A stretch of DNA of 64,000 bases, taken from the NCBI GenBank assembly GCA_015179125.1, contig WHVA01000077.1, positions 235,972 through 299,971 on the forward strand, written 5' to 3'. Source of the DNA: Gautieria morchelliformis. Its lineage: Eukaryota > Basidiomycota > Agaricomycetes > Gomphales > Gomphaceae. The notes beneath the pieces are model-generated. The model searched no databases. It was not told the DNA's origin and worked only from the letters and a program-made list of their open reading frames with translations. The position numbers were made by a program, and so were the translations under genes. Numbering within the stretch: position 1 is the first letter of the stretch; every line of letters begins with the position of its first letter. Of the stretch, positions 4,231 through 64,000 are shown piece after piece.

Positions 4231-6548
4231 TCATCCTCTCTCTTCACCTGTCATTTCCCCCTCCTCGACGCTCTCTTCACCTGTCATTTCCCCCTCATTA
4301 ACATAATCCCAACTCTCTGGCAGGTCTGAAAGAGATTCAAGCCCAATCGTTACATACTGCCTGTATGGCTTGGTGGCCTGTAAAGTGTACTCATCGGCAT
4401 CCGAAAATACGACCTTAACGAAGTCTGGTTTCAGCCATTCCAGAGCAGTCTCCCGAGAAAGTGTTAACCATTGAATCAAGAGTTTGGAGAATGGCTTCAA
4501 GCCCGTGGAGAAGTTTTTCGCGGCATCCTGTTGCTTTAACCTATCAAGGAAACTTCCCCTAGCTTGTAACACAGGTAACTCGTCAGAGAGCATCGTTTGA
4601 CGGTAATTCTGTTCTAGTAGTGCGAGTGCCCCCTTGGTCTCCAGAATCTCCAGAATCAACCAAAATAAAACCCATATAAACGACTCCAGGTCATCAATTA
4701 CTTGGTGCACAACTTGCGTTCCAGAGTCCCAAGCAACAATCAGCGCCTGAGACATGAAAGGCAGCATACCCTAGAACCATGTAAATCACAAGCCGCACAC
4801 AACAACTAAAGACCCACCGAGCGATGCTTTGCTAATTCCCGCTTCTGATCCATCCAACGAATCGCCTGGTCCCCATCGCATATGAATCCCACACATCTAG
4901 TAACTTCTCGAGTCACGGCAAAACTGAAGCAAACATAAAAAAACAAAAGGACTGATGTGAAAGACGGTATGTACTCTGCCACAGGCGGCCGCTCAGCTTC
5001 ATCCATCAGCATGACGTTCCTGACGCTTACGTCCGGTGCAACCAGCCATTCTTAAACAGCCCAAAATGCCCTGTCAATCACCATTATAGGTAAATCATGT
5101 CCGATGCCCTCTTCGTTCACATACCCAACATGGCGTGCACTATGCAATGCACGAGCAATCGAGGACTTTGTGCAGCTCACAGTGACATCCCTCGGGTCTC
5201 AAAAACAGATCGCATATGTATTCGTTCGTCAGGCCTAACCCCGGCGTATGGCTCTGCACACGGGCCAATACGTTGCGTCATCAGGTATGAGCTTATCCAT
5301 TCCGTCCTCGACAAGGTATGAGGCAAGGATGTCTGGCAGTCCAAATCTGCCCGATAACGCTCCAAACATTGTGCCTTCTTCGTTATGGATTTTCAATGGC
5401 CATGAATCTTTCAGAATGACAGTGTCCGGCAAGAGAAAAGATATGCCTCCCTTCAACCTCAAGGGTTCTCGACCGTCAGTCTCTTTTCCAGGCTGAGAAT
5501 ACGGGGGTTGGTGACTTCGTAAGTTATACCGGTGAGTGGACTGAGGTTGGGCGGGAGAACCATCGGTGGCGGTTGCACCTTCAAACCCAATTGTTAACTA
5601 CTGGCCCAGATCTCTAAATGTCAAAACACACCCTTCTTGACCAAAAGATACACACGCGTTGCTCGTCTGCGAACGCAACGTCGGTCACAAAGTGTTTCCA
5701 AAATCTTGAATATACCCCTCTCGGGAATCGCAATGTCTGTGATGGTACGAGTAGTATCGATTCCAGCATGGTTTGTGTCGGTCCAAGAATTAATCCAAAC
5801 CACTCCATGGACAAATCCTTTAAAGCCTCCCTCCTTCAAGAGGTCAAGTTCCGGCGTAACAACCAGACCCATGCGAGAATAAAATCCGAAGCGCACCCCC
5901 ATCGTTGCGTTGTTGAAATGGATAACAGTGACGAAGAGTCTATCCAATTGGTGTGTGAACATACAGCGCGCGTACGTGCTTGACTGCAGGATCAAACCAG
6001 GCCAGTTATTCTTCACCTCTACGCAAATTTCAGCCTCATTCCATGAGAGCTTCGGCTTCGAGCCTCGGCTCTCACCAACCGACTGACAACCAACAAGGTC
6101 TGGTTTTAGGGGGGAAGTCTGTGTCAAGGGCTTCAGCCATTTCCCGACCGTACACGTAAAACTGAAGACCTCGGTGGATATTGCCATTCGGCAGCTTTTG
6201 GGAGGAGATGGACAGAATCTGGTTGAGTAGCCACTCCACCGGCGCATAATGAGCGCCTTCTGGACCAGTGCGGCTGGCCCATTCCTTGAAAGTGTCGGTT
6301 GGGCTGTCCCAGAACATGCCAGGTTTCAGTTTGGATCGGACAGTGTCAACAATCTTTTGATCTGCCCAACAGCGCTCTTCAAGCAGAGAATTACTCTCGA
6401 ATATCGCACCGGAGAACTCGCCCTTCATCAGCTTTTTCAAATCATCCTGGGTCCGAATGTGTGATTCATGAGATTTACTGGAACTGACGCTATATGGTGT
6501 GCTCGTCATCAACGGAAGCTTGAGAGATTGGGGCGGTGTTGATGGCAT
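4231..6548 (-). pseudogene. FunK1-type fungal protein kinase, broken cargo gene
   Basis: The frame reads from about 6548 down to 4231 through several short introns. Recognisable FunK1 features are an N-terminal region with KPDLVGCQ and ARCMFTHQLDRLF, a kinase core around 5030-4860 (DVSVRNVMLMDEAE), and a C-terminal block MLPFMSQALI followed by IDDLESFIWVLFW, the hallmark of this family. Two lesions are visible. An extra base in a C-run near 6103 shifts the frame before KPDLVG. A missing base near 5033 destroys the catalytic HRD motif: His and Arg sit in one frame and DVSVRN in the next. FunK1 kinases are expanded in mushroom genomes and their substrates are largely unknown. The C-terminus carries a short tandem repeat (EGEMTGEE). 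Start choice (6548 or 6509) is uncertain. Confidence 0.8.
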
Positions 6549-10989: not shown

Positions 10990-13900
10990 TTAATATATTC
11001 CGATTTGCTCGTTGAGAATCTTTACTCTAGGACTAGGAAGTCCTTTAGTGAGGATATCTGCCAACATTTGTTCGGTTGGCAAATAAACGAGCTTGGCTTG
11101 TTGATTTTTGATTATATCTCGAAGGAAATATAATCGGATGTCGAAATGCTTGGTTCTCGTGTATTGTTGGGTGCCATACGTGATGGCAATGGCTGATTGA
11201 TTGTCTGAATAAACTTGGATGGGTCTGTTCAGTGGTTGGAATATTTCAGAAATAAAATGGCGCATCCAAAGAGCCTCTTTGCCCGCATGGATCAGGGCGA
11301 CGAATTCGGCTTCAGTTGATGAGAGGGCTACTATCGACTGTTTCTGGCAACTCCATGAAACAGTGCCTCCATCAATCTGAAATAAGTATGCCGAATACGA
11401 ACGCCTATGACTCTGTGAACCCCAATCCGCATCTGAATACCCCATCAAGCCGTCTTGATTTCTTCCAAGTGTGAGTTTGTAATGCTTCATGCCTTTCAAA
11501 TATTTGAAGACACGTTTGACTGCATTCCAGTGTGTGCCACCTGGATTTTCAAGGAATTGCGAGAGTAATGACACCGCAAATGCAATGTCAGGTCGAGTGG
11601 CTACAGCCGCCCACATCAGTGATCCTATAGCTTGCCTGTATGGAAACTTCGACATGGCTTTCTTGCCTCTCTCTGTAGAAGGACATTGGTCTTTAGATAA
11701 TTTTACGGCTGGATCAAGAGGCGTAGCATAAGTCTTTGCATCTTCGAGATTAAATTTTTGATGATCTTCTCGATGTATGCAGGTTGTGAAATTGCAATGG
11801 TCTTCTTCTGCCAGTCTCTTTCGATTTTGAGATTCAATAGCCAATGAATCTCACCTAGATCTTTCATACTGAAGACCTGAGCAAGATCTCGTTTGACTTC
11901 GTCCAGGACTGACTGATTCTCAGCTGTGATGGTAAGGTCGTCCACAGCTGTTGCAATGATCACATGCCCCTTTCCGCCACGTCTATAAAATACAGCCCCG
12001 TCTGTGGCTGACGTAGTGAATCCTAACTTGTGGAATTCACCACTTAGACGTTTGTACCATTCTCTTCCAGATTGCTTGAGGCCGTAGAGTGCTTTCTTCA
12101 AAAGTAGCACTTCGCCTTTGTCTCCTGACTCATATCCATACGGCTGCTTCATGTAAATAGGTTCGGGCAACGTAGCATTGAGGTATGCATAGTCCACGTC
12201 CATTTGATGAATAGGCCAGTCATTCCTAGCAGCAATGGCGCATATGATCCGTAGGGAGGATAACCGAGCAACAGGTGAGTATGTCTCATCATAGTCGATT
12301 CCAAACTTCTGCGTGAAGCCTTGGGCGACCATTCTCGATTTAGGTACTATTGGTTTCCCTTCTGGATTACGCTTCCAAAGGTAGACCCATTTGTTACCGA
12401 CAATATTGGCTCCAGGAGGTGGTTTGGCTCGTTCCCACACTCCCTTGTCGATTAGGGCCTCATACTCTTTGTCCATTGATTTCTTCCATATAGGATTATT
12501 CAGAGCTTCGTCTGCATTGCTAGGTTCAATTTGACTCAAATCCGGCGCCTTGTTATTGTTTTGACCGTCGGTTAGAAACGCACTGATGGCACACTCATAG
12601 CTACTGATGCCATCAATCTCGGAGGATAATTCTTGGTCGAATAAAACTTCTTTATGGTCCTCAACGTCCTCGTAAGCTAGCGTAGTCATATGTGCGCCAG
12701 TTTGTCTCTGAGTTTGAGATCTTGTCACGGGACCTGATGGGGCCGGCTGCACTTGTTGTTGACGGATCCTTTCGCTTCTCCTTATCGGTTCAGCTTCCCT
12801 AGGTCTGTCATCAACTCCCTGAATAGGTTGCAGCTTTTCAAGATATTCTTCCGGTGCACTTTCATCAATTTCTTCAATCTTTGCCTCTTCGCTGACTAAG
12901 CGACCGGGCACAGGCACTGATGCCGGAATGGCCTTCTTCTCTTCTTTAGACGTAGGTAGCTTGGATTCCTCAATAGAAATGATTGGGACCTTTCCCTTCT
13001 TCATTTCTGAATCAAAGACAATGTTCCGCTCGACAGAAACTTTGTGCGAGTCAGGCCAATAAACATAATGACCATGGCTCTGCGCAGAAATTCCTATCCA
13101 CCGAGCTCTCTTGGCACGAGCTGCCAATTTATCTCCCTGAGTGATTTTAACGTAAATTTCAGTTCCCCACGCGTGAATGTCTTTGAGATTCGGTTTTTCA
13201 TGGTGAATCATCTCGTAGGGCGTTTTATCTGGTAGAGCTCTTGTATGCGTCCTGTTCCTAAGATAATTGGCATGCTGTATCGCATAGCCCCATAATATCT
13301 TAGGAAGGCCTGATTCTAGCAGCATGGCACGAGTTCTCTCAGTGAGAGTTCGGTTCAGGCGTTCCGCAACACCATTGGACTCTGGTGTGTCGTGTACCGT
13401 CAACTGATGCTTCGTGCCTTGTTTGGCTAGATGCTGTTCGAATTCAGAGCTCATATACTCGCCCCCTCGATCAGAAACAAGTGCCTTGATGTGCACATTT
13501 CTCTGTCGAAGCATTAAAGCCTCGTAGAGCTTGTACTTTGAGAATGCTTCTGATTTGTTCGCCATGAGATAGATCACCGATTCTCTTGAGTAGTCATCGA
13601 TAAAGGAGACATAATATGACTTCTTATCGATCATGAGGTGTCTTGCAGGTCCCCAGACATCAGAATAAATTCTGTCACCGAATTTTGATGTTCGGTCTCT
13701 GGGTTCTCGAGGAAGAGGTTTGCGTGCAATCTTGGCCTGAATACACGCATCGCAGACAATTCTATCGCCTGTGGAGCTCAGTTCAATGCCCAATATCATG
13801 CCATGATTTAATAGATGTTGTAGGGACTTCTGTGAGATGTGCCCCATTTTTTGATGAATTTCCATGGCAGACAAACACATATGGGCTTGAGCACTTGGTG

Positions 13901-15233
13901 ACTGGAGGTCTAGTCGATATAAACCATTGACCTTCGGTGCTTGCATCAATACCTTTCCAGTAGTGTTAGATATTGTGCATTTCTGGCCACCGAGTCGAAT
14001 GTCGTAGCCAGCATCATCGCACCGACCGATCGAGACGAGGGTAGCAGCAATTTTTGGAGCATAATATGTATCTTGCAACGTGACTTCTACTGTTTTATCT
14101 CCAACCTTGTTGGATAATACAAGCAGTCCTGAACCGAAGGCATCAAAAGTGCCTTTGTTGGCTGCTCGGATAGTCCTCGGCTGTGAGAATTGACAGTAGT
14201 TCCTCAATAAATTTTTGTGAGGAGTCATATGCGATGTCGTTCCGGTGTCGAGTATGACTATAACTCCTGAGGATGTGCTCAAATTGAAATTAGAGCACTC
14301 GTCGAAATTGGTGAAGGCAAGATGCCCATCACCACTTTCCTCAGAAGTAGACTCTTCTTCGGCAACATTCGCTTTTGCTTTACCCTTCTTCTTCTTCTTG
14401 CCTTTGGCTTTCTTCTTCTGACGTGGTCCTTGACCTTCTTTACCACCTCCTTTAGCCCAGCAATTTTCGATGGAATGTCCAGGCTTTTTGCAGTTGGTGC
14501 ATACATGCGCCTTCTGCCCCTTCTGGTCCTTCTTAGTAGATGAACCAATAAACACCTGCTCTTCTTGCGGGAGTGTTTTCTTCCTGTCATACTGAGCCTT
14601 TAGTACCCTAATAATATTATCAGGGACCAATGGCATCCCGCATTCTTCAAGCGAAGTTGTAAGGGCATTCATGACTGCCTCATAGGATGGTGGAAGTGAC
14701 GCAAGGATTATGTCCATGAATTCTTCTTCAGAAACTCTAGCTCCCATCTCATTAAGACGAGCATATAGGTCTTGGGCCTTGTCCAAATGATCTCTCAAGT
14801 CTCCATCCTCAGGACATCTCATACTGCGGAGTTGTCTCTGCAGGCTGGTGAGGACCATCTTGGGCTTTTTGGTCATCTCATTGACCAGTGCATCCCAAGT
14901 CTCTTTTGCTGTCTTCTGCTTCTGTAGCATCAGGGCTAATGACTCTGACACTGAGACGATGATTTGGGTCTTGGCTTGTCCTTCTCTAGCAAGGTATCTC
15001 TCCAGCTTCTCCTCAGCCTTATCCATCTGAGTTTCCTCAGCTTCTGTAAGAATATGGCCTGGGGGCATAACTGGAGGATCAGGAGGTCGAGTGACTCTCC
15101 CTTCTACATGCTTGAGTAGATTTTTGGACTCGAAATAGCTGATGAGAGTAGCTCGCCACAATGGCCAATTACTTCCATCAGTAGCAAGCTTCTCAACACC
15201 CAATAGCTTCTCAGAAGTGTCTCCGGGGCCCAT
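10990..15233 (-). pseudogene. Copia gag-pol polyprotein with one frameshift
   Basis: The start is ATG 15233 (MGPGDTSEKLLGVEKL). Domains in order: a Gag region with a CCHC zinc knuckle (CTNCKKPGHSIENCW); protease with LDTGTTSHMT; integrase with an HH-CC finger (HQKMGHIS ... CDACIQAK) and core DVWGPA, FIDDYSR and PESNGVAERLNRTL; RT with FTQKFGIDYDETYSPVA, LYGLKQSGREW and catalytic VDDL; RNase H with DADWGS, STEAEF and TKHFDIR. The frame reads without stops for 1,176 codons to about 11755. There a one-base loss in a run of T (plus strand 11751-11759) shifts into the frame of the last ~260 codons. A sequencing error in the homopolymer is possible; otherwise the copy needs trans help. Confidence 0.95.
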
Positions 15234-17998: not shown

Positions 17999-20722
17999 TC
18001 AAATCAGGGCCATGGAGTGTTCCCTTTGTATTTGGTGATTTATTTCTGCCACCCATCTCACCTTCACTTCTTTTCTTGTGAAGGTTTTTTCTCCGATTGT
18101 TGATTTGTTTCTTATCTTCCATAGGAGCCACGCCGTTTCTAGGACTAGGTCCTTGTATTTTTGCAGTGTTCGTGTTGAAGAGAAGTGTTCTGCCTTCTTT
18201 ACGGCTCCTAATCCTCTTATCAGGTGTTCATTTGGGTGTATCCATTCGTTTACCCCTTCTTTTATCTCTGTTGTCTTTTTCCAGAGCGTTTCTGCTGCAT
18301 CCCAAACCTCTGATCGGCCCAGGGTCTGACATTCGAACCAGATGTGGTCCATTGTTTCTAGGCCTCCGCATTTTTTACAGCTGGCCCTTTCCTCATAGCC
18401 TGGTATGTTTTTCCAGTATACCCCGACTCTTAATCTTCCATGTAGCAGTTTCCACAGGAAGTCTGCAATGTTTCTCCTTATGGTGGGTGACTTTAGTGTC
18501 TTCCATATTGCCCTTTCTGTTGGGCTTACACCCAGTGTTTCTTGTAGCTCTGCCTTTGTTTCGGCAAGCTTTTTCCTTCCGGTTTTCGTTACCGGATCAA
18601 TGTTTTTTCCTCTCATTATTAGCTCGTAGGCTAGTTTCTGAGTTAGGCTCTGCAGCCTCGCCCCTTTGAGTTCGTATTCCTCTGGGACGACTAGGTCTAT
18701 TTCATCGGCTTCGGCTTTATTTGCGCCTTCCGAGGCTAGTCTATCTGCCTCTTCATTGCCTTTTGTACCGGCATGTCCTTTCACCCATTCAAAGGTGGTG
18801 ACTGCGCCCCTTATCATCAATTCGTATTTTATTTTCTTGAAGATGTCAGCATTGTCTACGTTGAGCCAAGCCATGTCTTCCCATTTGTTTAATCCTTCGA
18901 TTATTTCGGCTGCTGCGTAAGTCGAGTCGGTCTTTATCTTCAGGGGGTCTCCTTTTGGTATCATTTCTAGGGCTTTCAAGATGGCCACTAGTTCTCCCCT
19001 TTGGTTCGTTTGCTTTTTTCCGGGCACTCTTATGGCCCTTGTGTAATTTTTGTTATCTTGGCAGTATATTCCTGCTCCTGTTCTGGCTGACTCCGTGTTT
19101 GGGTCGAGGCATGATGTAGACTTCCCATTCCTTTCCTGTTTTGTGGTGTTTTCTATAGGTTGGCTTTGCCTGCCACTCCTCTTTTTGTTCTTTGTCCAGG
19201 AATATCCTTGTTGCATTCTCTGGTATTCTCTTTCTGTTATATCTGGGTTCGCTACGTTTTCACCTGTGTTCGTGAAACATTTGTATTTTCGTTTCCTCCC
19301 TGTCGTGTGGTCTAGCCCATCCGCATAGGGGGTTCCTTTTTCGGGGTCCCATTTTTCTGGGTAACCTTTGTATAGGTACTTTTTGACCCAGGTGTTATTT
19401 TTCACTAGCAGCTTTTCAACTCTCTTTTGAAAGTCCTTTGCGTTTAGTGTCTGTTCGTCTAATTTCCACATGCCCTCTCCGCTGTACGGGAGATTGTCGG
19501 CCATTATTTTTGCCGTGATCAGGCTGTGATCGCTTAAGTTGAAGTTTGACTCTATCGTGGCGTTGTATGTCAGTTCCGCCATGTCGTCTGTCATATATAT
19601 TCTGTCTATTCTGGCCAGCAAGCTTGACCCTTTTTGTGTGAATGTGAAGGTGAGCTCGTTTTCGTTTAGTAGCCTCCACACGTCTTTTAGTTTTCTTGTT
19701 TTCGTCACCCCTTTAAGGGCTTCGGTAACTCTTTCTCTGTCTTTGTGGGCCGGGCTCCTGTCTATGTCTTTTTCGACACAGTTGAAGTCTCCCAACAGGC
19801 AGATTGTTTCTTTCTTGTTCTTATTCAGATACCTCTTTATAGTTTCAAAGAAGTCTATTTTCTCTTCGGTGTCATTCGGGGCATAGACGTTCAACAGGTT
19901 TAGCTGTTGGTTGTCTCCCCATTTCAATTTTAGTATCTGGGCTCTATTCGGCACCAGTGGTCTACGGTCTATAATGACTTCTGCCTCTTCGGCGTTTATC
20001 TTTGCCAAGTTTATGTCGAACAGCGTCCCTAGCTTGTTGGAGTGTTCTCCATTCACTAGAAACAGGATTCCTGGGTTTTGTCAGGGGACACCCTGTTTTC
20101 CATTTCCAGTTCCGACACCGCACCCAGTTCCGACTCCATTTCCGACTCTGGTTCCGGTTCCGATTCCATCTCCACCTCCGCTTTCGGAAATGATTCCGCT
20201 TCTGGGAGAACTTCCACCAGTTCTGTTCGCCTTGCCAGTTCCACTCCAATTTCTGACTTCCACTCTCGGAACAGTGTCGGAAATCAAGCGACTCGCATAA
20301 TAGGCGGCATCAAGTGTCGATCAAGGGTCCTGGAGGTGCAGGATTGATGGCGGGTGCCAAGTGTTGTCCCTGGCTGCGCAGCGTAGTATAATACGGGCTC
20401 GCTGACATTGGGGGTCCTTAGACTTTTCTCTTTGGATTTCCCCTTGTCAGGTGAGAATCCCCTCTCTTGTATACTCTGTTCATTTATACATACTTTGGAT
20501 TTCCCCTTGTCAGTTGTGTGGTAGTGTGATCTCCACAACCAGCCAGGGTTGCCCTTACAGGTTTGCTCTTGAGGTTTCTTCCGCCTCGTTTGTTTTCATT
20601 CTGGCTTCTTGGACCACCAACACTGCAATTCCCTTTAGCCTCATTATTCTTGTGATTGCATTCCACTTTGACTTGTGGTTGCTATCGTTCTTTCCTTTTG
20701 TATTCCACGAGGCGATAGTCAT
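17999..20722 (-). pseudogene. LINE ORF2: endonuclease and RNase H, RT domain missing
   Basis: The endonuclease begins at about 20722 (MTIASWNTKGK ... VLVVQEARM). After the solo LTR it continues with LNLLNVYAPNDTEE, LLGDFNCVEKDIDRSPAH and NLSDHSLITA, the usual exonuclease/endonuclease motifs. About 150 residues after the endonuclease, the same frame enters RNase H (TNQRGELVAILKAL, KTDSTYAAAEI, WVKGHAGTKGNEEADRLAS). A C-terminal finger follows (CKKCGGLETMDHIWFEC). No RT fingers/palm or FADD-type motif occurs between, and the first RNase H Asp motif (YTDGS) is not seen. The post-LTR part is one uninterrupted 685-codon frame to 17999, so the deletion kept the frame. This copy cannot reverse transcribe. 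Confidence 0.85.
20079..20559 (+). mobile_element. Solo LTR (family A) inside the LINE
   Basis: It starts TGTCAGGGGACACC and ends GGGTTGCCCTTACA. Perfect GGTTT duplications flank it (20074-20078 and 20560-20564). The same family occurs at 59688-60159 with its own duplication, and a diverged inverted relative at 30699-31052. The first third is a degenerate array of TTCCGACTCC-like decamers. No internal region is linked to it here, so it is a recombination product of an LTR element whose coding part is not in the window. Confidence 0.92.
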
Positions 20723-30698: not shown

Positions 30699-31052
30699 TG
30701 TAAGGGAAACCCTAGCTGGCTGTGGAGATCACACTACCACACAACTGACAAGGGGAAATCCAAAGAGAAAAGTCTAAGGACCCCCAATGTCAGCGAGCTC
30801 GTATTATATTATGCTCCACAGCCAGGGACAACACTTGGCACTCGCCATCAACCCTGCATCCCCCTGACCTCCCTGACCCTTGATTGACCCTTGATGTCAC
30901 CTATTACATGAGTCGCTTGACTTCTGACACTGTTATGAGAGTGGAAGTCGGAAAATGGAGTGGAATTGGCAAAGCAAACAGAACTAGTGCAAGTTCTGCC
31001 AGAAGTAGAATCATTTCCGAAAGCTTTATCAGAAATGGGCGCAGCTGGCACA
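30699..31052 (-). mobile_element. Diverged, shortened LTR related to family A
   Basis: Read on the minus strand, this matches the second part of the family A LTRs, including the segment TCTCCACAGCCAGC near its end and the AATGATTC/AGAACTTGCAC-like middle. It lacks the decamer array at the start. No target duplication is obvious. It sits 16 bp from the family B solo LTR, so one element landed next to the other. Confidence 0.7.
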
Positions 31053-51319: not shown

Positions 51320-52682
51320 ATGTCGAGCGACTACAATGTCACGCTAGTTGTGCCTCGCCCATCATCTGGTCAAAACCCTCATAACCCTATATTGGCACAC
51401 TCCACCATTCCTAAATCACTTCCTCCATGCCATATCGTTATTCGCGTTGACAGGTTCGGTTTCTCTTCTAACAACATCACCTACCAAGCACTGGGAGAAG
51501 AGCCTCATTTCCGGTGAGACATGTTAACTGTGGATTACCAATTACTCATAGCGCTCGCCGCTCGCAGATACTTTGAATTTCACCCAGCTCCAGACGCTCC
51601 AGATGTGCATGGGGTGATTCCAGTCTGGGGATTTGGCACCGTCGTTGCATCCAACGTGTCCAAGATTCCAGTTAATGAACGTGTGTTTGGATATCTCGCC
51701 ATGGCGCGTTATCTCTTACTCCCGGTGGACACGTCCAACATCAATCAGTTCAACTTCTACGTTCCCAGGCCACATCTACCTCCCGGTACGAACATGGCAG
51801 TCGTTTCTTCTCATTTGGATGTCTCATCACTCCCCAGATCGTCGGCCTTATAACCAGATTACGCGTTGCTCGCGTGACAAGCTGTATCATCCCGCAGAGG
51901 AGGACCTCTCCATGCTCTACCGGCCACTCTTCTGGACATCCTTTTGGGCGGAAGACTGGCTTTTCACTGGACCTAAGAAGCCCTACAATGGCGCCTCGAC
52001 TATCCTTATTTCGAGTGCTAGTTCAAAGACCGCTTTTTGCCTAGCCTATCTCGTGCAGAAGCGCAGCTACCACAGTCTCAAAGTCATGGGACTCACCTCC
52101 AAAGGGAATCTTGCTTTCACGAAAGGTCTGGGGTTGTACCATACAGTCTTCACGTACGACGAGGTCGAGGCGTACGCTGGTAAATCCGATGGCACATGGA
52201 TCTATGTTGACGTCGCGGGAAACGACGCCCTCAACTCACGAATATGGAACAAACTTGGCTCACGTGTTGTGCGCAACATAAGCCTCGGTCTTACTAATCT
52301 CAGTCCATCAGTACAGAGCACCTATGCCATGCCTGTGAGCGGAGTTACCAACTCTTCCACTCTGAAGCCTGGGACAGCAAGCAGCCCTGTCGAATTCTTC
52401 TTCATGCCAGAGTGGCTAGCAGAGCGTCGTCACACCCTCACTGCATCCGACATTTCTAAGATGCAGTATACAGCTTGGGGTGCGCTCATGCGAGATTGTA
52501 AGGCGTGGGTGGCCTTGGAGAGGACTTGGGGGCCTGAGGAGGTGCGGCGTGGGTATTTGGAAATGGTCAAGGGTCGCGTAGGTCCTGATAAAGGCCTGAT
52601 ATGGAGTCTTTGGGACGAGCCGGACGGTTTGCTCTGGGAGCGGGAGCTGCTTAGACGCGGGTCAGTGTCTGGGAAGTTCTGA
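51320..52682 (+). CDS. DUF2855 family protein
   Basis: Three exons: 51320-51513, 51568-51785, 51838-52682, with phases that match. The start MSSDYNVTLVVPRPSSGQNP is the first ATG after the upstream spacer. Conserved DUF2855 blocks: VDRFGFSSNNITYQALGE, IPVWGFGTVVAS, ERVFGYLAMARYLLL, MLYRPLFWTSFWAEDWL, ILISSASSKTAFCLAYL, VMGLTSKGNLAFTKGLGLY and YVDVAGN, ending near WGPEEVRRGYLEMVKG. The SSASSKTA and LTSxxN blocks resemble the nucleotide-binding part of medium-chain dehydrogenases, so an oxidoreductase-like fold is plausible. No activity is established for the family. Length (about 418 residues) is normal. Confidence 0.9.
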
Positions 52683-56099: not shown

Positions 56100-59000
56100 A
56101 TGACCCCTAACTCCTCAATGGACCACAATGAGCAGGTCGCCAACGCTTTTCCTTCATCCGGGCATGACGAAACGCCGCCGATCGTAGAACCGTCTTTGGT
56201 ACCCTCGAAGGTAAGCAAGGTTTATTCCAGGAGGCTAAAGAATCAACGGGATTGACTATCTAACGAATCTTCATGAATAGTTCATATTGCTGTCTACTTC
56301 TGGTCTTGCTGCAGTGAGCCCGGGCATCGAATCTACCCCCACGACGCAAACCGATGAGCATCGAAGTGCCGGGCTCAGGTTACTTTCACTCGGTAATGCT
56401 TGATACTTGTTATATGACACCTTCTGACTCCCTCAGCAGATGGCGGCGGCATCCGTGGCTTGTCCGAACTTATCATTCTACAAGAAATCATGCAAAGAAT
56501 CCAGCGCCAAGAAGGACGACCCACGGTGCCCCTTCCTTGCGAATATTTCGACTTAATCTGCGGGACGAGTACAGGCGGGTAAGTTGCTTGCTTAACGATC
56601 ACCGCCGCTCTCTAACGCGGTCCATGCAGGCTCATAGCACTTATGCTGGGCCGCCTCCGCCTCCCCGTAGATAAAGCGATAGAAGCCTATGGCAATTTCT
56701 CCTCAAAAGTGTTCTCGGAGAAGAAACCATTTTGGAAGGATGGAATATTCAAGGCTAGCAATATGGAGAAAGCTATTAAGGCGATCATACAGGAATCGAT
56801 TGGCGACCCTAATGCACGAATGCTCGATCCAAGGCCGAGCAGCGAAGTGTGCAAAACGTATGTTCACGTTGCCGCTCTTTCTTGACCTGATACATATCTG
56901 ATCGTGGCCCAGTTTCGTCTGCGCGATGCCCGCAAATAATATAAGCACACCCCGCCTCTTTCGCACGTACACCGTGGAAAGGAATGAATCATTCGACTGC
57001 ACTATCTGGGAGGCCGCTCGTGCTACGTCTGCCGCTCCTACTTTCTTCAAACGCATTTTCATCGGTACACCACCTCTAGATGAAGAATTTGTCGATGCCG
57101 GTCTGGGTTGTAACAACCCTGTCAAGCAAATCCTCAGGGAGGCGGAGCACATGTTTCCGCACCAACATATTGGTTGCGTCATAAGTATCGGGACGGGTCA
57201 TGTCCCCACAACCGGCCTACCAGCACCCAGTCTGTTCAACAGGGTTGTTCCTTTAGATGTAGCTGAGGTATTGAAGAAGATCACGACCGAGTGTGAAGCC
57301 ACAGCGGAGGAAACTGAATTCCGCTTCAGGTCTATTGCAAATGGTTACTTCCGATTCAATGTTGAACAAGGAATGCAAAATGTGACATTAGCGCAGTGGG
57401 AAAGGCTGAGAGACGTGAAGACACACACATTGCAGTATCTGCTGCAGGACAAAGTAGACAAGATGCTCACAGCGGCTGTCAAAGCTCTGAGAGAGCGGCA
57501 GGAAGTGATACCTGCCACACACCTCAGTGCGTACAACCTGCATTGCCTCGCAACTGATGATATATGTTTTATAATAGACAGCATTGGTGTCAGCACTCTC
57601 AGCAGGGAACCTGATAGAAGAGCACATTTTAAGACTTGCCCTCCACCAACAAGCAGGTTTACCGGAAGAGCTGATACCCTTATGCAACTGGAGGGATACT
57701 TCTTTGCAGACTGGTCATCTGACGAGCCGGAACAGCGCATCTTTGTCTTGTATGGGCTTGGTGGGGCTGGAAAAACACAGATTGCATTGAAATTCATTGA
57801 AAAGTCTTATCAACGGTGGGGTAGCTTACCTAGGTCTGTTATGTTTGGACTAACTTGTGTTATGTCCAGTTTTTGGAGAGTCTATTATGTTGACGCAAGT
57901 AGTGTGATCACTATTGAGTCTGGCCTTGAAGATATTGCTCAGGAAGAGGGTGTTGGTGAGACTGCCAAAGATGCTCTGCTCTGGCTTTATGGACAACACC
58001 AAAGGTGGTTGCTCTTCTTGGACAATGCTGATGACCACAACATAAAACTTCGAACATACTTCCCAAAGTGCAAGCATGGAAATATCATTCTGACAAGTCG
58101 CGATGTGGGATGTCGTGGGCATGCACCCAGCTCCAACTGTCATGTGTCAAGTATGAATGCTAAAGAAGCTATTCATTTGTTCTTTGTGTTCTCAGCAGTC
58201 AAAGATTCTGGAAAGAACCTTGGCTTGGCATATAGGGTTGTAGAAGAGCTTGGCCATCTTCCCCTGGCCATTGTACAAGCAGGTGCTTATATCTCAAAGG
58301 GATGCAGTCTTGATGCATACCTGAACATTCTCCAGAAGGATCGGGCTCAACTGATGAACAACCACTCAGCACAAATGCTGGATGATTATCCATGGGCAGT
58401 ATACGTGACATGGGAAATTAGCTTTAAGAAGCTAAGTCACATTGCAGCAACCCTGCTACACCTGTGTGCATTTTTACATTATAGGGGGATTTCTATCAGC
58501 ATCTTCCAAAAGGCTTCTGTCGGGGATCTAGATGGACCATTTGAGGATGCAAAAGTATTTCTGCATAACTTTCAAACCACAGATGGTGGCTGGAGTGATT
58601 TTAAATTTCTGGAGATCATTCATGAATTAGCTTCATACTCATTAATTAGTACTGATGAAGAAGACAGTACATTTTTTTTTCATCCACTAGTACATGTCTG
58701 GGCTCATGATTGCCTGGAGGTGGGAGAGCAGGAGAATAAGCAGGGCTGCACAATGCAGATATTAGCACTTTCTATCTCATATGAAGAGAGTAGAGAGGAG
58801 TATTCTTTTAGGAGATCTCTTCTGTCTCATATAAATGAGCTACATACAAAAGCTACAGATTCAAACATGGCAGAAAAATTTGCCAAAGTGTTCTGTGAAG
58901 CAGGGCGATGGAAGGATGCTGAGGAGCTGGAGGTTCAAGTGATGGAGGCAAGGAAGAGGGTCCTTGGAGAGGCGCACCCTGCCACCCTGACCACCATGGG

Positions 59001-59687
59001 CAACCTTGCCTCAACCTATTGGAATCAGGGCCGGTGGAATGATGCTGAAAAGCTGGAGGTTCAAGTGATGGAGGCAAGCAAGAGGGTCATTGGTGAGGAG
59101 TACCCTGCCACCCTGAACATCATGGGAAACCTTGCCTCAACCTATTGCAATCAGGGCCGGTGGAATGATGCTGAGGAGCTGGAGGTTCAAGTGATGGAGG
59201 CAAGGAAGAGGGTCCTTGGAGAGGAGCACCCTGCCACCCTGGCCACCATGGGCAACCTTGCCTCAACCTATTGCAATCAGGGCCGGTGGAAGGATGCTGA
59301 GGAGCTGGAGGTTCAAGTGATGGAGGCAAGGAAGAGGTCCTTGGAGAGGAGCACCCTGCCACCCTGACCACAATGGGCAACCTTGCCTCAACCTATTGCA
59401 ATCAGGGCCAGTGGAATGATGCTGAGGAGCTGGAGGTTCAAGTGATGGAGGCAAAGAAGAGGGTGCTTGGTGAGGAGCACCCTGCCACCCTGGCCGCCAT
59501 GGGAAACCTTGCCTCAACCTATCACAATCAGGGGCGGTGGAAGGATGCTGAGGAGCTGGAGGTTCCAGTGATGGAGGCAAGCAAGAGGGTGCTTGGTGAG
59601 GAGCATCCTGATACCCTGATCACCATGAGCAACCGTGCTTTAACCTATGGGGATCAGGGCCAGTGGAAGGATGCTGAGGAGCTGCAG

Positions 59688-60159
59688 TGTCAGGGGACAC
59701 GCTGTTTTCCATTTCCAGTTCCGACTCCATTTCCGACTCCGCTTCCGGTTCCGATTCCATCTCCGCCTCCGCTTTCGGAAATGATTCCGCTTCTGGGAGA
59801 ACTTCCACCAGTTCTGTTCGCTTTGCCAGTTCCACTCCAATTTCCGACTTCCACTCTCGGAACAGTTTCGGAAATCAAGCGACTCGCATAATAGGTGGCA
59901 TCAAGGGTCGATAAAGGGTCAGGGAGGTCAGGGGGATGCAGGGTTGATGGCGGGTGCCAAGTGTTGTCCCTGGCTACGCAGCGTAGTATAATACGGGCTC
60001 GCTGACATTGGGGGTCCTTAGACTTTTCTCTTTGGATTTCCCCTTGTCAGGTGAGAATCCCCTCTCTTGTATACTCTATTCATTTATACATACTTTGGAT
60101 TTCCCCTTGTCAGTTGTGTGGTAGTGTGATCTCCACAACCAGCCAGGGTTGCCATTACA
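59688..60159 (+). mobile_element. Solo LTR (family A) inside the TPR array
   Basis: This 472-bp LTR starts TGTCAGGGGACACGC and ends GGTTGCCATTACA, with perfect TGCAG duplications at 59683-59687 and 60160-60164. It is close in sequence to the family A LTR at 20079-20559. LTR plus duplication is 477 bp, a multiple of three, but stops inside the LTR (for example TAA at 59889) end the reading frame. A plus-strand open frame enters the array again from within the LTR (60051). Confidence 0.95.
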
Positions 60160-60420
60160 TGCAGGCTCAAGTGATGGAGGCAAGGAAGAGGGTCCTTGGA
60201 GAGGAGCACCCTGCCACCCTGACCACAATGGGCCACCTTGCCTCAACCTATCGCAATCAGGGCAGGTGGAAGGATGCTGAGGAGCTGGAGGTTCCAGTGA
60301 TGGAGGCAAGCAAGAGGGTGCTTGGTGAGGAGCATCCTGATACCCTGATCACCATGAGCAACCGTGCTTTAACCTATGGGGATCAGGGCCAGTGGAAGGA
60401 TGCTAAGGAGCTGGAGGTTC

Positions 60421-61932
60421 AAGTGATGGAGGCAAGGAAGAGGGTCCTTGGAGAGGAGCACCCTGCCACCCTGACCACAATGGGCAACCTTGCCTCAACC
60501 TATTGCAATCAGGGCCGGTGGAATGACGCTGAGGAGCTGGAGGTTCAAGTGATGGAGGCAAGGAAGAGGGTCCTTGGAGAGGAGCACCCTGCCACCCTGG
60601 CCACCATGGGAAACCTTGCCTCAACCTATCGCAATCAGGGCCGGTGGAAGGATGCTGAGGAGCTGGAGGTTCAAGTGATGGAGGCAAGGAAGAGGGTCCT
60701 TGGAGAGGAGCACCCTGCCACCCTGACCACAATGGGCAACCTTGCCTCAACCTATTGCAATCAGGGCCGGTGGAATGATGCTGAGGAGCTGGAGGTTCAA
60801 GTGATGGAGGCAAGGAAGAGGGTCCTTGGAGAGGAGCACCCTGCCACCCTGACCACCATGGGCAACCTTGCTTTAACCTATGGGGATCAGGGCCAGTGGA
60901 AGGATGCTGAGGAGCTGCAGTTTCAAGTGATGGAGGCAGGGAAGAGGGTCCTTGGAGAGGAGCACCCTGCCACCCTGACCACAATGGGCAACCTTGCCTC
61001 AACCTATTGCAATCAGGGCCGGTGGAATGACGCTGAGGAGCTGGAGGTTCAAGTGATGGAGGCAAGGAAGAGGGTCCTTGGAGAGGAGCACCCTGCCACC
61101 CTGGCCACCATGGGAAACCTTGCCTCAACCTATCGCAATCAGGGCCGGTGGAAGGATGCTGAGGAGCTGGAGGTTCAAGTGATGGAGGCAAGGAAGAGGG
61201 TCCTTGGAGAGGAGCACCCTGCCACCCTGACCACAATGGGCAACCTTGCCTCAACCTATTGCAATCAGGGCCGGTGGAATGACGCTGAGGAGCTGGAGGT
61301 TCAAGTGATGGAGGCAAGGAAGAGGGTCCTTGGAGAGGAGCACCCTGCCACCCTGGCCACCATGGGAAACCTTGCCTCAACCTATCGCAATCAGGGCCGG
61401 TGGAAGGATGCTGAGGAGCTGGAGGTTCAAGTGATGGAGGCAAGGAAGAGGGTCCTTGGAGAGGAGCACCCTGCCACCCTGACCACAATGGGCAACCTTG
61501 CCTCAACCTATTGCAATCAGGGCCGGTGGAATGATGCTGAGGAGCTGGAGGTTCAAGTGATGGAGGCAAGGAAGAGGGTCCTTGGAGAGGAGCACCCTGC
61601 CACCCTGACCACCATGGGCAACCTTGCTTTAACCTATGGGGATCAGGGCCAGTGGAAGGATGCTGAGGAGCTGCAGTTTCAAGTGATGGAGGCAGGGAAG
61701 AGGGTCCTTGGAGAGGAGCACCCTGCCACCCTGACCACAATGGGCAACCTTGCCTCAACCTATTGCAATCAGGGCCAGTGGAATGATGCTGAGGAGCTTG
61801 AGGTTCAAGTGATAGAAGCAAGGAAGAGGCTGCTTGGTGAGGAGCACCCTGCCACCCTGGCCACCATGGGAAACCTTGCCTCAACCTATCGCAATCACAG
61901 CCGGTGGAAGGATGCTAAGGAGCTGGAGGTTC
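60421..61932 (+). repeat. 756-bp higher-order duplication in the TPR array
   Basis: The segment at 60421-61176 (six 126-bp units) is repeated at 61177-61932. The unit order repeats, including the rarer units ending ALTYGDQ and beginning GQWKDAEELQFQVMEAGKR. Their start markers (CTTTAACCTATGGGG) lie at 60871 and 61627, exactly 756 bp apart. The copies differ at few bases, so the duplication is recent. Confidence 0.85.
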
Positions 61933-61971
61933 CAGTGATGGAGGCAAACAAGAGGGTGCTTGGTGAGGAGC

Positions 61972-62269
61972 TGTCAGGGTTCATGCATTTCCTTCCACAA
62001 GTTTCTATTTCCTTCCATGAGTTTCCGTTACCTTCCATCAGTTTCCATAACCTTCCGTCACCTTCCATCACCTTCCGTCACATTCCGTCACCTTCCGTAA
62101 CCTTCTACAAGTTTCCGTCTCCCCTATTATGTAAGCCTTGCCAGCGCTATAAGACTGTAGCCCATGTGGTGGCGTTTTCTCAGCTTGATCTCTGAGGATA
62201 CCCACTACACAGGCAAGTCCCCATGTATCTATCGTTGGTAGAGTTATAAACTGAGGATACCCACTACAC
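61972..62269 (+). repeat. Gypsy 5' LTR
   Basis: It starts TGTCAGGGTTCATG. The first part is a degenerate array of CCTTCCGTCA-like decamers (about 61987-62120). A 21-bp direct repeat CTGAGGATACCCACTACACA(G) occurs at 62192 and 62251. The LTR probably ends ...ACTACA(CA) at 62268-62270, followed by TTGGTCATTGTC as a possible primer-binding site. The exact 3' border is uncertain by a few bases. Confidence 0.7.
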
Positions 62270-62409
62270 AGTTGGTCATTGTCCTAGTATCGGCTCTTAT
62301 CTCCTTGAGTATCTTTGGTTGTGGCTTCGTCATTAGTGTTGCCCTCACAGAAGATCAAGCTCATAAGACGACCCCACACACTTTTCTTAACCAGCCTTCA
62401 TCTCAGCCT

Positions 62410-63624
62410 ATGGCAGACCAACTCCCAGACACATACTGGGACACCCTGGGTGACCATGGGCCATTTCTTCGAGGCCTCCTTTCCAGCCAAGCACAGCAGC
62501 TGCAGCAACTTCAACTGCAGAATCAGGAACTGCACAGTCAGATTGTTAACATTCACGACCACTTAGCCAATGCTGCCGCCAACGCTGCTGTTGCTGCTGC
62601 TCAAGCCCTTGCGCCCTCAGTACCTCACAGTGTCCCTCCATCTACTCGCTCTATCAAAGCAGCGGAACCGGAGAAGTTCAATGGAGACCGTGCAGAGACT
62701 GAAGGGTTTATCAGGTCTATCAGATTGTCCATCGCTGTCCAGCCGGCATCCTTCCCAGATGAACGCACAAAGATCCTATACGCTCTTTCCTTCATGACGG
62801 GAGGCTCTGCGGAGATATGGGCACACAACGAGACACAGGCTGTCATTGATGGCACCTCCTCTATATCCACTCTGGAGGGGTTCATTAAACGTGCGGAGGA
62901 GGCCTTTGGTGACCCAGATCGTGCCAGAACGGCTCACACTAAACTGCATGACCTTAGGATGGCGTCAGGAATGTTGGCAGATGAATACACGGCTCAATTT
63001 GAGATCCTGGCAGGCAGGACAGGCTTTAATGATGAGGCACTCGAGGATGCCTATGCTCGTGGCCTTCCAGCAGGTATCCTTGATAAGATCCACGCCGAGC
63101 CCTTTCTTCCATCCAACCTCAAAGCCTGGAAGGAAGCAGCCTGTCGGATTGACCGCAATCATCGCCGTCTGTTAGAGGTCAGGAAGGCACAGACACCTCA
63201 TGTCCCTAATCGCCCTCCTCCTGCCCGTCCACTCCACACTCCTGCTACGGCTCCTGTTGTCACAGCACCACCCAGTAATGCAACACCTATGGACATTGAC
63301 TCATCCCGCCGCCGCACCGAAACACGGACCTGCTACAACTGTAAGAGACCTGGTCACATTTCACCAGACTGTCCTGAACCTCGCAAGCCACGAATCCGCG
63401 CAAACCTCACGGAGGCGGACATTGCAGCAATTGTCTCTAAATCTGTGCAGCGGCGATGGAGGAACGCAAACAGAAGGGGGAAGCCCCTGTCCAAGATGAA
63501 GGAAAGGGTTTTTAGGCCAGTCAGTGGTGAAAGACATGCCCCGCTCGACAAATCGGTTTTCAGTTCTCGAAACATGTACAATAGGGATCACAGGCGATAT
63601 GATGCATCCTTCTCCTATCCCTGA
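62410..63624 (+). CDS. Gypsy Gag polyprotein
   Basis: ATG 62410 (MADQLPDTYWDTLGDHG) is preferred over an upstream in-frame ATG at 62272, which lies at the LTR/leader. A Gln-rich coiled coil (LQQLQLQNQELHSQI) and an Ala-rich stretch precede the capsid domain (KAAEPEKFNGDRAETEGFIR, ILYALSFMTGGSAEIWA, FKRAEEAFGDPDRA-type block, MLADEYTAQFEILAGRTGF). A CCHC knuckle follows (CYNCKRPGHISPDCP). The frame ends at TGA 63624 and overlaps the start of the pol frame. Gag packages the element RNA; this copy's frame is intact. Confidence 0.9.
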   Translation: MADQLPDTYWDTLGDHGPFLRGLLSSQAQQLQQLQLQNQELHSQIVNIHDHLANAAANAAVAAAQALAPSVPHSVPPSTRSIKAAEPEKFNGDRAETEGFIRSIRLSIAVQPASFPDERTKILYALSFMTGGSAEIWAHNETQAVIDGTSSISTLEGFIKRAEEAFGDPDRARTAHTKLHDLRMASGMLADEYTAQFEILAGRTGFNDEALEDAYARGLPAGILDKIHAEPFLPSNLKAWKEAACRIDRNHRRLLEVRKAQTPHVPNRPPPARPLHTPATAPVVTAPPSNATPMDIDSSRRRTETRTCYNCKRPGHISPDCPEPRKPRIRANLTEADIAAIVSKSVQRRWRNANRRGKPLSKMKERVFRPVSGERHAPLDKSVFSSRNMYNRDHRRYDASFSYP

Positions 63625-64000
63625 TCGAACTGAAACCAAACCAGCCATGCCAAAAACCCAACCCATCGCTCCAGTTGCTAATGCAAACCTTCCAGTCCCT
63701 CTATATGTCTGTACTGCTGACCTCCGCCGATGCACCAAAGTACCTCTCAAGGTCTACTCCGTTGACACAGGGCATCCACTTGCAATTGACTCCCTCCTTG
63801 ACAGTGGTGCTACAGGGATGTTCATCGATGGGGAGTTTGTAAGGGAACACAGACTTCGACCCATCCCCTACCCCGTGCCATCCCCGTCTACAATATTGAT
63901 GGTACCCCAAATGAGGCTGGCTCAATCAAGGAAGAAGTTGACCTCATTTGCACCTTTGGGGATCATACGGAACGTGCCACATTCTCCGTCACGAGCCTTG
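63599..64000 (+). pseudogene. Gypsy pol start (protease), partial and frame-disturbed
   Basis: The frame from ATG 63599 (MMHPSPIPDRTETKPAM) overlaps the end of gag. The aspartic protease motif is IDSLLDSGATGMFIDGEFV. After REHRLRPIP near 63865 the expected continuation (IPVYNIDGTPNEAGSIKEE) is in another frame, so a small insertion or deletion has occurred there. The rest of pol is outside the window. Confidence 0.8.

What the first reader, a model, noticed from the sequence alone, without database searches (positions are those of the whole stretch)
58890..61971. NLR sensor repeats evolving in concert, with a recent 756-bp block duplication
About 20 TPR units of exactly 126 bp are almost identical, vary at a few residues (R/C/H/W/G at unit ends, N/K, T/A), and a six-unit block is duplicated (markers at 60871 and 61627). 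High internal conservation with hypervariable sites is the signature of fungal NLR sensors under diversifying selection (as in HET-type receptors), suggesting a fast-changing recognition surface.
Basis: partly seen in the sequence, partly recalled or inferred. Interest (0 to 1): 0.8.

Follow-up and report, generated by a model that had tools for sequence, protein, structure and literature searches.

The report
Broken fungal immune-receptor repeat array
This is the tandem-repeat sensor end of a fungal immune-type receptor gene, one of a family in this genome whose repeats vary mostly at two likely contact positions, but this particular copy has been cut up by jumping genes and is probably no longer working.

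Summary
The array is real. A patatin/NB-ARC/TPR gene of a 122-Mb fungal assembly carries 20 units plus one partial unit of a 126-bp (42-aa) TPR repeat at 58900-61971. The 756-bp offset is right, but the exact block is 615 bp (4.9 units).

In 199 clean units from 18 array segments of this genome, codons 31 and 41 (TPR positions 2 and 12, groove-facing by published mapping) show 1.8-3.0 times the expected amino-acid changes, while the other codons together show 0.6. The nearest paralogue (2.1% substitutions in the body) has 16 units in a largely different order, so arrays are re-dealt quickly. The NLR reading therefore holds for the family, but not significantly for this array alone, and this copy looks like a pseudogene. 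About half or more of the changes at codon 41 are CpG transitions. Such behaviour is known from fungal NLRs with high internal repeat conservation (PMC4986451). New member of a known kind.

The parts
56438..57545 (+). Patatin-like (PNPLA) effector region in exons 56438-56581, 56629-56860 and 56914-57545 (boundaries read by eye from GT-AG, not tested); motifs GGGIRG, GTSTGG and DAG present
   Evidence: Pfam Patatin on exon pieces 56439-56579 (profile 4-38, 26.8 bits, just under the 27.7 cut-off) and 56914-57543 (profile 133-189, 29.6 bits, over it); the middle piece 56631-56858 had no match; translations; motif names recalled
57721..58302 (+). NB-ARC nucleotide-binding domain
   Evidence: PF00931 36.1 bits over cut-off 23.5, residues 266-459 of ORF 56926-59367; genome search C859:293692-294279
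58420..58698 (+). DUF7779 match (weak)
   Evidence: PF25000 23.4 bits, below cut-off 27; 32.3 and 29.0 bits, over cut-off, in relatives L034 and L028
58900..59687 (+). TPR array part 1: units 1-6 and the first 33 bp of unit 7
59278..59402 (+). Unit 4, 125 bp: one G fewer in a GGG run, frameshift, stop at 59365-59367
59683..59687 (+). Left copy of target-site duplication TGCAG
59688..60159 (+). Solo LTR, 472 bp, TGTCAGGGGACA...TGCCATTACA; 40 scored genome matches including itself, the other 39 95-98% identical over all or nearly all of the query 59692-60159
60160..60164 (+). Right copy of target-site duplication TGCAG
60165..61971 (+). TPR array part 2: last 93 bp of unit 7, 13 full units, 76 bp of a last unit
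60406..61020 (+). First copy of the exact 615-bp duplicated block
61162..61776 (+). Second copy of the exact 615-bp duplicated block (offset 756)
61972..64000 (+). Second LTR family plus gag-like ORF (CCHC zinc knuckle) of a retrotransposon that runs off the contig end; starts TGTCAGGG; Ty3-type is a guess
   Evidence: a protease-like DSGATG motif in ORF 63524-64000 is read by eye, Pfam found nothing in that ORF

Best explanation
The locus is a degenerate member of a family of patatin/NB-ARC/TPR NLR-type receptor genes in an unnamed fungus. In intact members the 42-residue TPR units would stack into a kinesin-light-chain-like superhelix. A constant scaffold would present changeable residues, chiefly at TPR positions 2 and 12 of helix A, in the concave groove. 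Ligand capture would release NB-ARC and let the patatin phospholipase act. Units are duplicated, lost and reshuffled, most likely by unequal exchange, faster than the rest of the gene diverges, and selection keeps changes at the groove codons. In this copy that history is still legible, but a frameshift (real or an assembly error), a solo LTR and a truncating retroelement have broken the reading frame. Shown: domains, unit turnover, codon-specific excess in the family, insertions. Inferred: unequal exchange, ligand recognition, switching, cell-death output, loss of function.
For: Domains. Array and block duplication. Paralogues: 270 matches of one unit in the genome, a lower bound; 19 array-bearing loci examined including the window, one (L029) dropped because it is 99.6% identical to L031 over 9.1 kb. 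Codon 31: observed/expected replacements 3.01 (P 7e-8) and 1.90 (P 1e-4) in 65 and 88 matched pairs; codon 41: 1.75 (P 9e-4) and 1.82 (P 6e-6); the other codons together 0.62 and 0.58. Transversions alone: codon 31 3.16 (P 2e-5) and 2.19 (P 3e-4), codon 41 2.40 (P 0.0015) and 2.64 (P 1e-6). Sister gene L021: 60 of 2881 body sites differ, pN/pS 0.43, but 16 units against 21, none identical. Nearest neighbour of a unit lies in the same array in 54.8% of cases, 5.7% in shuffles. Fold: mean pLDDT 86.9, two helices per unit; PDB matches are led by kinesin light chain and include the P. anserina repeats 4Y6C/4Y6W. LTR with target duplication.
Against: The selection signal rests on the family; in the window array alone it fails correction. 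Matched pairs are not fully independent, because gene conversion can move variants between units. Of the four transversion-only results, codon 41 in close pairs (P 0.0015) does not survive correction for 42 codons. The synonymous CpG rate rests on few opportunities (14 and 24). Window and L021 units are hardly farther apart (11.6 differences) than units within either array (10.4 and 11.5), and a three-unit stretch is still collinear. The helical-wheel clustering of variability is borderline (P 0.05, on the 202-unit entropies). The single-G deletion lies in a short G run and may be an assembly error, as may the one in L021's body. No expression, strain or ligand data. The AlphaFold model is single-sequence (two of five models had pLDDT under 50) and no coordinates were inspected for the concave face.
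Confidence: 0.75

Rival explanations
1. Neutral birth and death of repeats with CpG mutation: units are homogenised by unequal exchange, and the apparent hypervariability is only CpG decay at arginine codons.
For: At codon 41 the first two bases are CG, TG or CA in 152 of 199 units, and 24.4 of its 39.0 (or 33.0 of 66.0) replacement changes are CpG transitions in one direction or the other. Codon 3 (R/Q/W, entropy 1.38 bits) shows the same series: CG, CA or TG in 192 of 199. 157 of 221 CpGs in the 199 units lie at codons 3 and 41. C-to-T type differences are more frequent at CpG than elsewhere in the TPR arrays (3.8-fold, 5.2-fold without codons 3 and 41), in two WD40 arrays (2.3 and 1.8), in the solo-LTR family (4.2) and in gene bodies (3.8 and 1.7), though not in the second LTR family (0.8).
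Against: Codon 31 has almost no CpG changes (1.0 of 31.7) and is the most variable codon. Transversions alone keep an excess at both codons, while codon 3 shows none (0.62 and 0.61).
Confidence: 0.12
2. Repeat-directed CpG methylation and mutation (RIP-like or premeiotic methylation) acts on tandem arrays in this fungus and supplies the diversity.
For: TPR arrays are CpG-starved: observed/expected 0.07-0.18 in 18 of 18 segments against 0.46-0.98 in the 2.5 kb upstream of the 17 measured. TpG is higher in the array than upstream in 17 of 17. Units hold 1.11 CpG on average against 3.77 expected from the codon usage of the gene body (202 units). A role of RIP in NLR repeats has been proposed for Podospora (PMC4986451, passages).
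Against: Three WD40 tandem arrays of the same genome, about 13-15 units each, have CpG o/e 1.01-1.10; six were asked for and three obtained. CpA is not consistently raised in the TPR arrays, and the regions downstream of 17 arrays vary from 0.05 (it holds a second repeat group) to 1.00 in CpG o/e. All TPR arrays share one ancestry, so a CpG-poor founder unit explains them; recoding the consensus unit gives as few CpGs in 26% of draws.
Confidence: 0.1
3. Broken arrays such as this one serve as silent donors of units to intact family members by ectopic conversion.
For: Several arrays are interrupted and the window and L021 share unit types.
Against: Nine sets of identical units exist among the 199 clean units and 0 of 9 span two arrays; the closest window-L021 units differ by 4 bases, in line with common descent.
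Confidence: 0.05
4. The breaks are assembly artefacts and the gene is intact.
For: Unit 4 lacks one G of a GGG run; L021 lacks one base at an AAA run (run read). The contig ends inside a retroelement.
Against: The solo LTR has an exact target duplication and the unit halves add up to 126 bp. An independent insertion of the same family, with identical LTRs and duplication CTGAG, sits in a paralogue's array.
Confidence: 0.08

Closest known systems
Fungal NLRs with high internal repeat conservation (Dyrka et al. 2014, PMC4986451; abstract, passages and section 17 read)
   Same: Nucleotide-binding domain plus near-identical repeats; variable sites of TPR repeats reported on the concave helices; array turnover between close copies here, repeat-number polymorphism between strains there.
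   Different: Patatin effector here; one genome only, so no strain polymorphism; this copy is interrupted by two LTR insertions.
Podospora anserina TPR-like repeats, PDB 4Y6C and 4Y6W (titles seen; the paper, Marold et al. 2015, seen only as a reference entry, not held)
   Same: Nearly identical TPR-like units; sequence match E 4.3e-29 and 3.5e-35, Foldseek TM 0.86 and 0.84 by target. The 42-residue length of those units is recalled.
   Different: 34% identity; other species.
Kinesin light chain TPR domain (KLC1/KLC2)
   Same: Best sequence and fold matches; the two best-scoring stretches of the first KLC1 chain align with no or one gap over the units.
   Different: Units there are more diverged and the protein is a cargo adaptor (recalled), not an NLR.
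HET-E/HET-D/HET-R (HNWD) incompatibility receptors of Podospora
   Same: Conserved repeats with variable codons at the binding interface (PMC4986451, passages).
   Different: HET effector, NACHT and WD40 there (PMC12222747, passages); patatin, NB-ARC and TPR here.

Membership tests
Fungal NLR / STAND receptor | Nucleotide-binding NB-ARC or NACHT domain | tested here: met
   NB-ARC over cut-off
Fungal NLR / STAND receptor | Recognised N-terminal effector domain | tested here: met
   Patatin over cut-off on exon piece 56914-57543, just under on 56439-56579, none on 56631-56858
Fungal NLR / STAND receptor | C-terminal superstructure-forming repeats in one reading frame with the rest | tested here: not met
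   In this copy only 3 full units precede the stop. The ORFs of relatives L034 and L028 run through 14 of 15 and 15 of 17 unit hits, so the family qualifies and this copy is best called a broken member
[quoted passage not shown]
   Mean amino-acid identity 85.7% over 18 clean units of 42 residues, only just over the mark; nucleotide 91.7%. The published detection program was not run
NLR repeats with high internal conservation | Positive selection at concave-face codons | tested here: met
   Family level: codons 31 and 41, TPR positions 2 and 12 (mapping in print). Window array alone: not significant after correction. The published codon methods were not run
NLR repeats with high internal conservation | Repeat-number polymorphism between strains | not testable with these tools
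   One genome only; between paralogues units differ in number and order
HET-type (HNWD) incompatibility receptor | HET effector domain, NACHT, WD40 | tested here: not met
   No HET, NACHT or WD40 match among the pieces scanned; patatin, NB-ARC and TPR instead
Heterokaryon-incompatibility gene | Allele-specific cell death on fusion | not testable with these tools
   Needs strains
42-residue TPR-like repeat class (4Y6C) | 42-residue near-identical TPR units with KLC-like fold | tested here: met
Solo LTR | TG...CA ends, short target duplication, no internal region, family elsewhere | tested here: met

The most novel reading that the evidence does not exclude
The TPR units are nearly free of CpG except at two arginine codons, one of which (codon 41) is expected to face the binding groove. 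A single CGG or CGC codon there gives Arg, Trp, Gln, Cys and His by CpG transitions, so the family may keep a built-in mutational switch at a contact residue while selection maintains the diversity.
Probability: 0.12. Interest if true: 0.65.

Novelty: new member of a known kind. Interest (0 to 1): 0.38.

Why it matters
It extends the repeat-diversifying NLR pattern, studied in Podospora (PMC4986451), to a patatin/NB-ARC/TPR family in another fungal genome, with one young pair of paralogues that shows how fast arrays are re-dealt relative to the gene body. It also shows retroelements landing inside such arrays in two family members, a plausible route by which these genes are lost, and it warns that counting intact sensors from repeat arrays alone can mislead.

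Tried and rejected
CpG/RIP-like hypermutation as a general mechanism for tandem arrays: rejected after three WD40 arrays of the same genome proved CpG-rich. CpG as full cause of the unit-end variation: rejected by the transversion-only test. Silent-donor reading: 0 of 9 sets of identical units span two arrays. Preferential LTR targeting of arrays: three insertions lie in the arrays of two genes (two in the window, one in C398), and a copy abuts the array of L031/L029 (its target duplication was not established); copies of the solo-LTR family also lie in the flanks of several fetched loci, so no excess is claimed and no formal test was run. L029/L031 carry two separated repeat groups and were not studied further.

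Own errors corrected: three of the 202 'clean' units held non-repeat or frameshifted sequence (window 60132, L025 5908, L023 5337). They were removed and the main tests repeated with 199 units; the matched-pair results did not change. CpG rates, the recoding control and the helical wheel were not repeated. Before that, 38 of 240 units were dropped for weak match or a stop, and L029 (14 unit hits) as 99.6% identical to L031. One search also showed that my first statement of no collinear units beyond unit 1 was too strong. The LTR starts used as queries were 4 and 3 bases too far right; one search has the right edges. In one search one WD40 array (L050) gave no in-register units, so its mutation rates were not obtained.
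Full report
WHAT IS THERE. The window is the right end of contig C859 of an unnamed 122-Mb assembly (the contig ends at window position 64000); that it is a fungus is inferred from gene content. TRF finds 126-bp tandem repeats at 58901-59684 and 60163-61971. Unit by unit there are six units (the fourth 125 bp), a unit split in two, thirteen more, and a last one cut after 76 bp: 20 units and a partial one. The exact duplicate at offset 756 is 60406-61020 = 61162-61776, 615 bp without a mismatch. Between 60258 and 61895 the unit order is A B C D E F C D C D E F G, so the 'six-unit block' is a 4.9-unit block with a nested two-unit duplication.

WHAT BREAKS IT. Unit 4 lacks one G, and the frame of unit 1 stops at 59365-59367 after three full units. 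At 59688-60159 lies a 472-bp sequence that begins TGTCAGGG and ends ATTACA, flanked by TGCAG on both sides; the unit halves are 33 and 93 bp, together 126. The 40 scored genome matches include the window copy; the other 39 are 95-98% identical, so it is a solo LTR. Translated as it stands, the insert carries stops. At 61972 a second LTR family starts (42 genome matches, 40 of them over all or nearly all of the query, its own included), followed by a gag-like ORF with a CCHC knuckle. Array and gene end there. In 7 of the 17 paralogous segments (L029 left aside) the array closes in a degenerate unit reading KRSW-stop (L021, L026, L031, L032, L037, L038, L039), which the window copy lacks.

THE GENE. 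ORF 56926-59367 has the end of a patatin domain, NB-ARC over cut-off and TPR_10/TPR_12. Upstream exon pieces carry the patatin start with GGGIRG and GTSTGG, and DAG follows (motif meaning recalled). Relatives L034 and L028 have the patatin end (24.8 and 26.5 bits, just below the 27.7 cut-off), NB-ARC, DUF7779 and TPR in single ORFs of 1283 and 1308 aa. The genome search gives 34 NB-ARC matches.

THE FAMILY. A 126-bp unit has 270 matches in the genome, a lower bound. Eighteen paralogous array loci were read besides the window, chosen from the top of that list; 13 more regions were asked for and not obtained. L029 was dropped as 99.6% identical to L031 over 9.1 kb. L024 and L025 are halves of one gene: an element of the same LTR family, spanning 6234 bp of C398, sits in its array, with identical LTRs (0 differences of 480), duplication CTGAG, and unit parts of 92 and 39 bp less 5, i.e. 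126. The internal part of that element was not read in full. Several arrays stop early in the frame of unit 1: window 3 of 22 unit hits, L023 4 of 11, L037 6 of 16, L038 7 of 18, L035 10 of 17; some breaks may be assembly errors.

TURNOVER. The sister gene L021, about 78 kb upstream, differs at 60 of 2881 body sites, yet has 16 units against 21 and no identical unit. At most 6 differences per unit, the longest collinear run is three units (window hits 12-14 and 18-20 against L021 units 10-12), besides pairs against L021 units 5-6 and unit 1. So most of the order has been re-dealt, not all. L021 also lacks one base near the end of its NB-ARC region, so both sisters are broken in this assembly. 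Nine sets of identical units exist among the clean units, 0 of 9 spanning arrays. A unit's nearest neighbour lies in its own array in 54.8% of cases, against 5.7% in shuffles. Mean differences are 10.4 within the window array, 11.5 within L021 and 11.6 between them, so the two have hardly been homogenised apart since they split. Over all arrays, mean distance within is below mean distance between in 17 of 18 segments, L035 being the exception (202 units).

VARIABLE CODONS. In 199 clean units codon 31 has entropy 3.05 bits (T, I, R, N, M, K, L, A and others) and codon 41 has 2.81 (Q, W, R, L, C, G, H and others). One or other is the most diverse codon in 15 of 17 segments, L031 left out. With rates for four mutation classes taken from synonymous changes, replacements at codon 31 are 3.01 and 1.90 times expectation and at codon 41 1.75 and 1.82 times (65 and 88 matched pairs); the remaining codons together give 0.62 and 0.58. 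After multiplication by 42 codons these four P values stay below 0.05 (worked out). Transversions alone give 3.16 and 2.19 at codon 31, and 2.40 and 2.64 at codon 41; three of these four survive the same correction. The window array alone, six pairs, is not significant. In canonical numbering, set by the alignment to the TPR consensus from memory and consistent with the KLC1 alignment, the codons are TPR positions 2 and 12; positions 2, 5, 9, 12, 13, 33 and 34 are reported as the most variable and concave-facing (PMC1261162, passages). Codons 38 and 42 (positions 9 and 13) rank high too, without surviving correction; so do codons 28, 18, 11 and 1, which are not on that list.

CPG. The arrays are poor in CpG (o/e 0.07-0.18; upstream 2.5 kb 0.46-0.98, downstream 0.05-1.00). 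Of 221 CpGs in 199 units, 122 lie at codon 3 and 35 at codon 41. Hence R/C/H/W/Q at the unit end is in good part a CpG series. CpG sites are also more changeable than others in several other sequences of this genome, with one exception. Three WD40 arrays of the same genome have o/e 1.01-1.10, so tandem repetition does not by itself remove CpG here; a CpG-poor founder is the simplest cause.

STRUCTURE. A model of eight units (window 60384-61391) has mean pLDDT 86.9 and two helices per unit, helix A at unit residues about 27-42. Both variable codons are in helix A. The clustering of variability on one side of helix A is borderline (P 0.05), none in helix B (P 0.61). PDB matches are led by kinesin light chain; the P. 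anserina repeats 4Y6C/4Y6W are among them.

VERDICT. The reading 'NLR sensor repeats evolving in concert' is right in kind and known in print for TPR repeats of fungal NLRs (PMC4986451, abstract, passages and section 17). Its interest lies in the family and in the young pair with re-dealt arrays. I make no claim that LTR insertion into such arrays is unreported; the literature searches did not address that question fully. The organism was not identified; a basidiomycete is a guess from recalled family distributions.

Noticed in passing
L025 and L024 (C398:67768-74001): An LTR element of the same family as the solo LTR, 6234 bp, lies inside the TPR array of a paralogue, with identical LTRs and target duplication CTGAG: a very recent insertion.
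   Followed up: yes
TPR arrays of 18 segments; contrast L048-L050: TPR arrays are CpG-starved (o/e 0.07-0.18), three WD40 arrays of the same genome are not (1.01-1.10).
   Followed up: partly
11703-15233 (-): Long ORF of a copia-type retroelement (RVT_2, rve, gag matches).
   Followed up: no
17999-20056 (-): ORF with an RNase H match and weak endonuclease/reverse-transcriptase type matches, perhaps LINE-like.
   Followed up: no
20079-20559 and 30699-31024: Further copies of the solo-LTR family in the window.
   Followed up: no
51633-52682 (+): ORF with a DUF2855 domain.
   Followed up: no
5621-6247 (-): ORF with a match to the fungal protein kinase family Pkinase_fungal.
   Followed up: no
L029 and L031 (C1068 and C133): Two loci 99.6% identical over 9.1 kb on different contigs, with copies of the solo-LTR family, one at the array edge; possibly haplotype copies.
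   Followed up: partly
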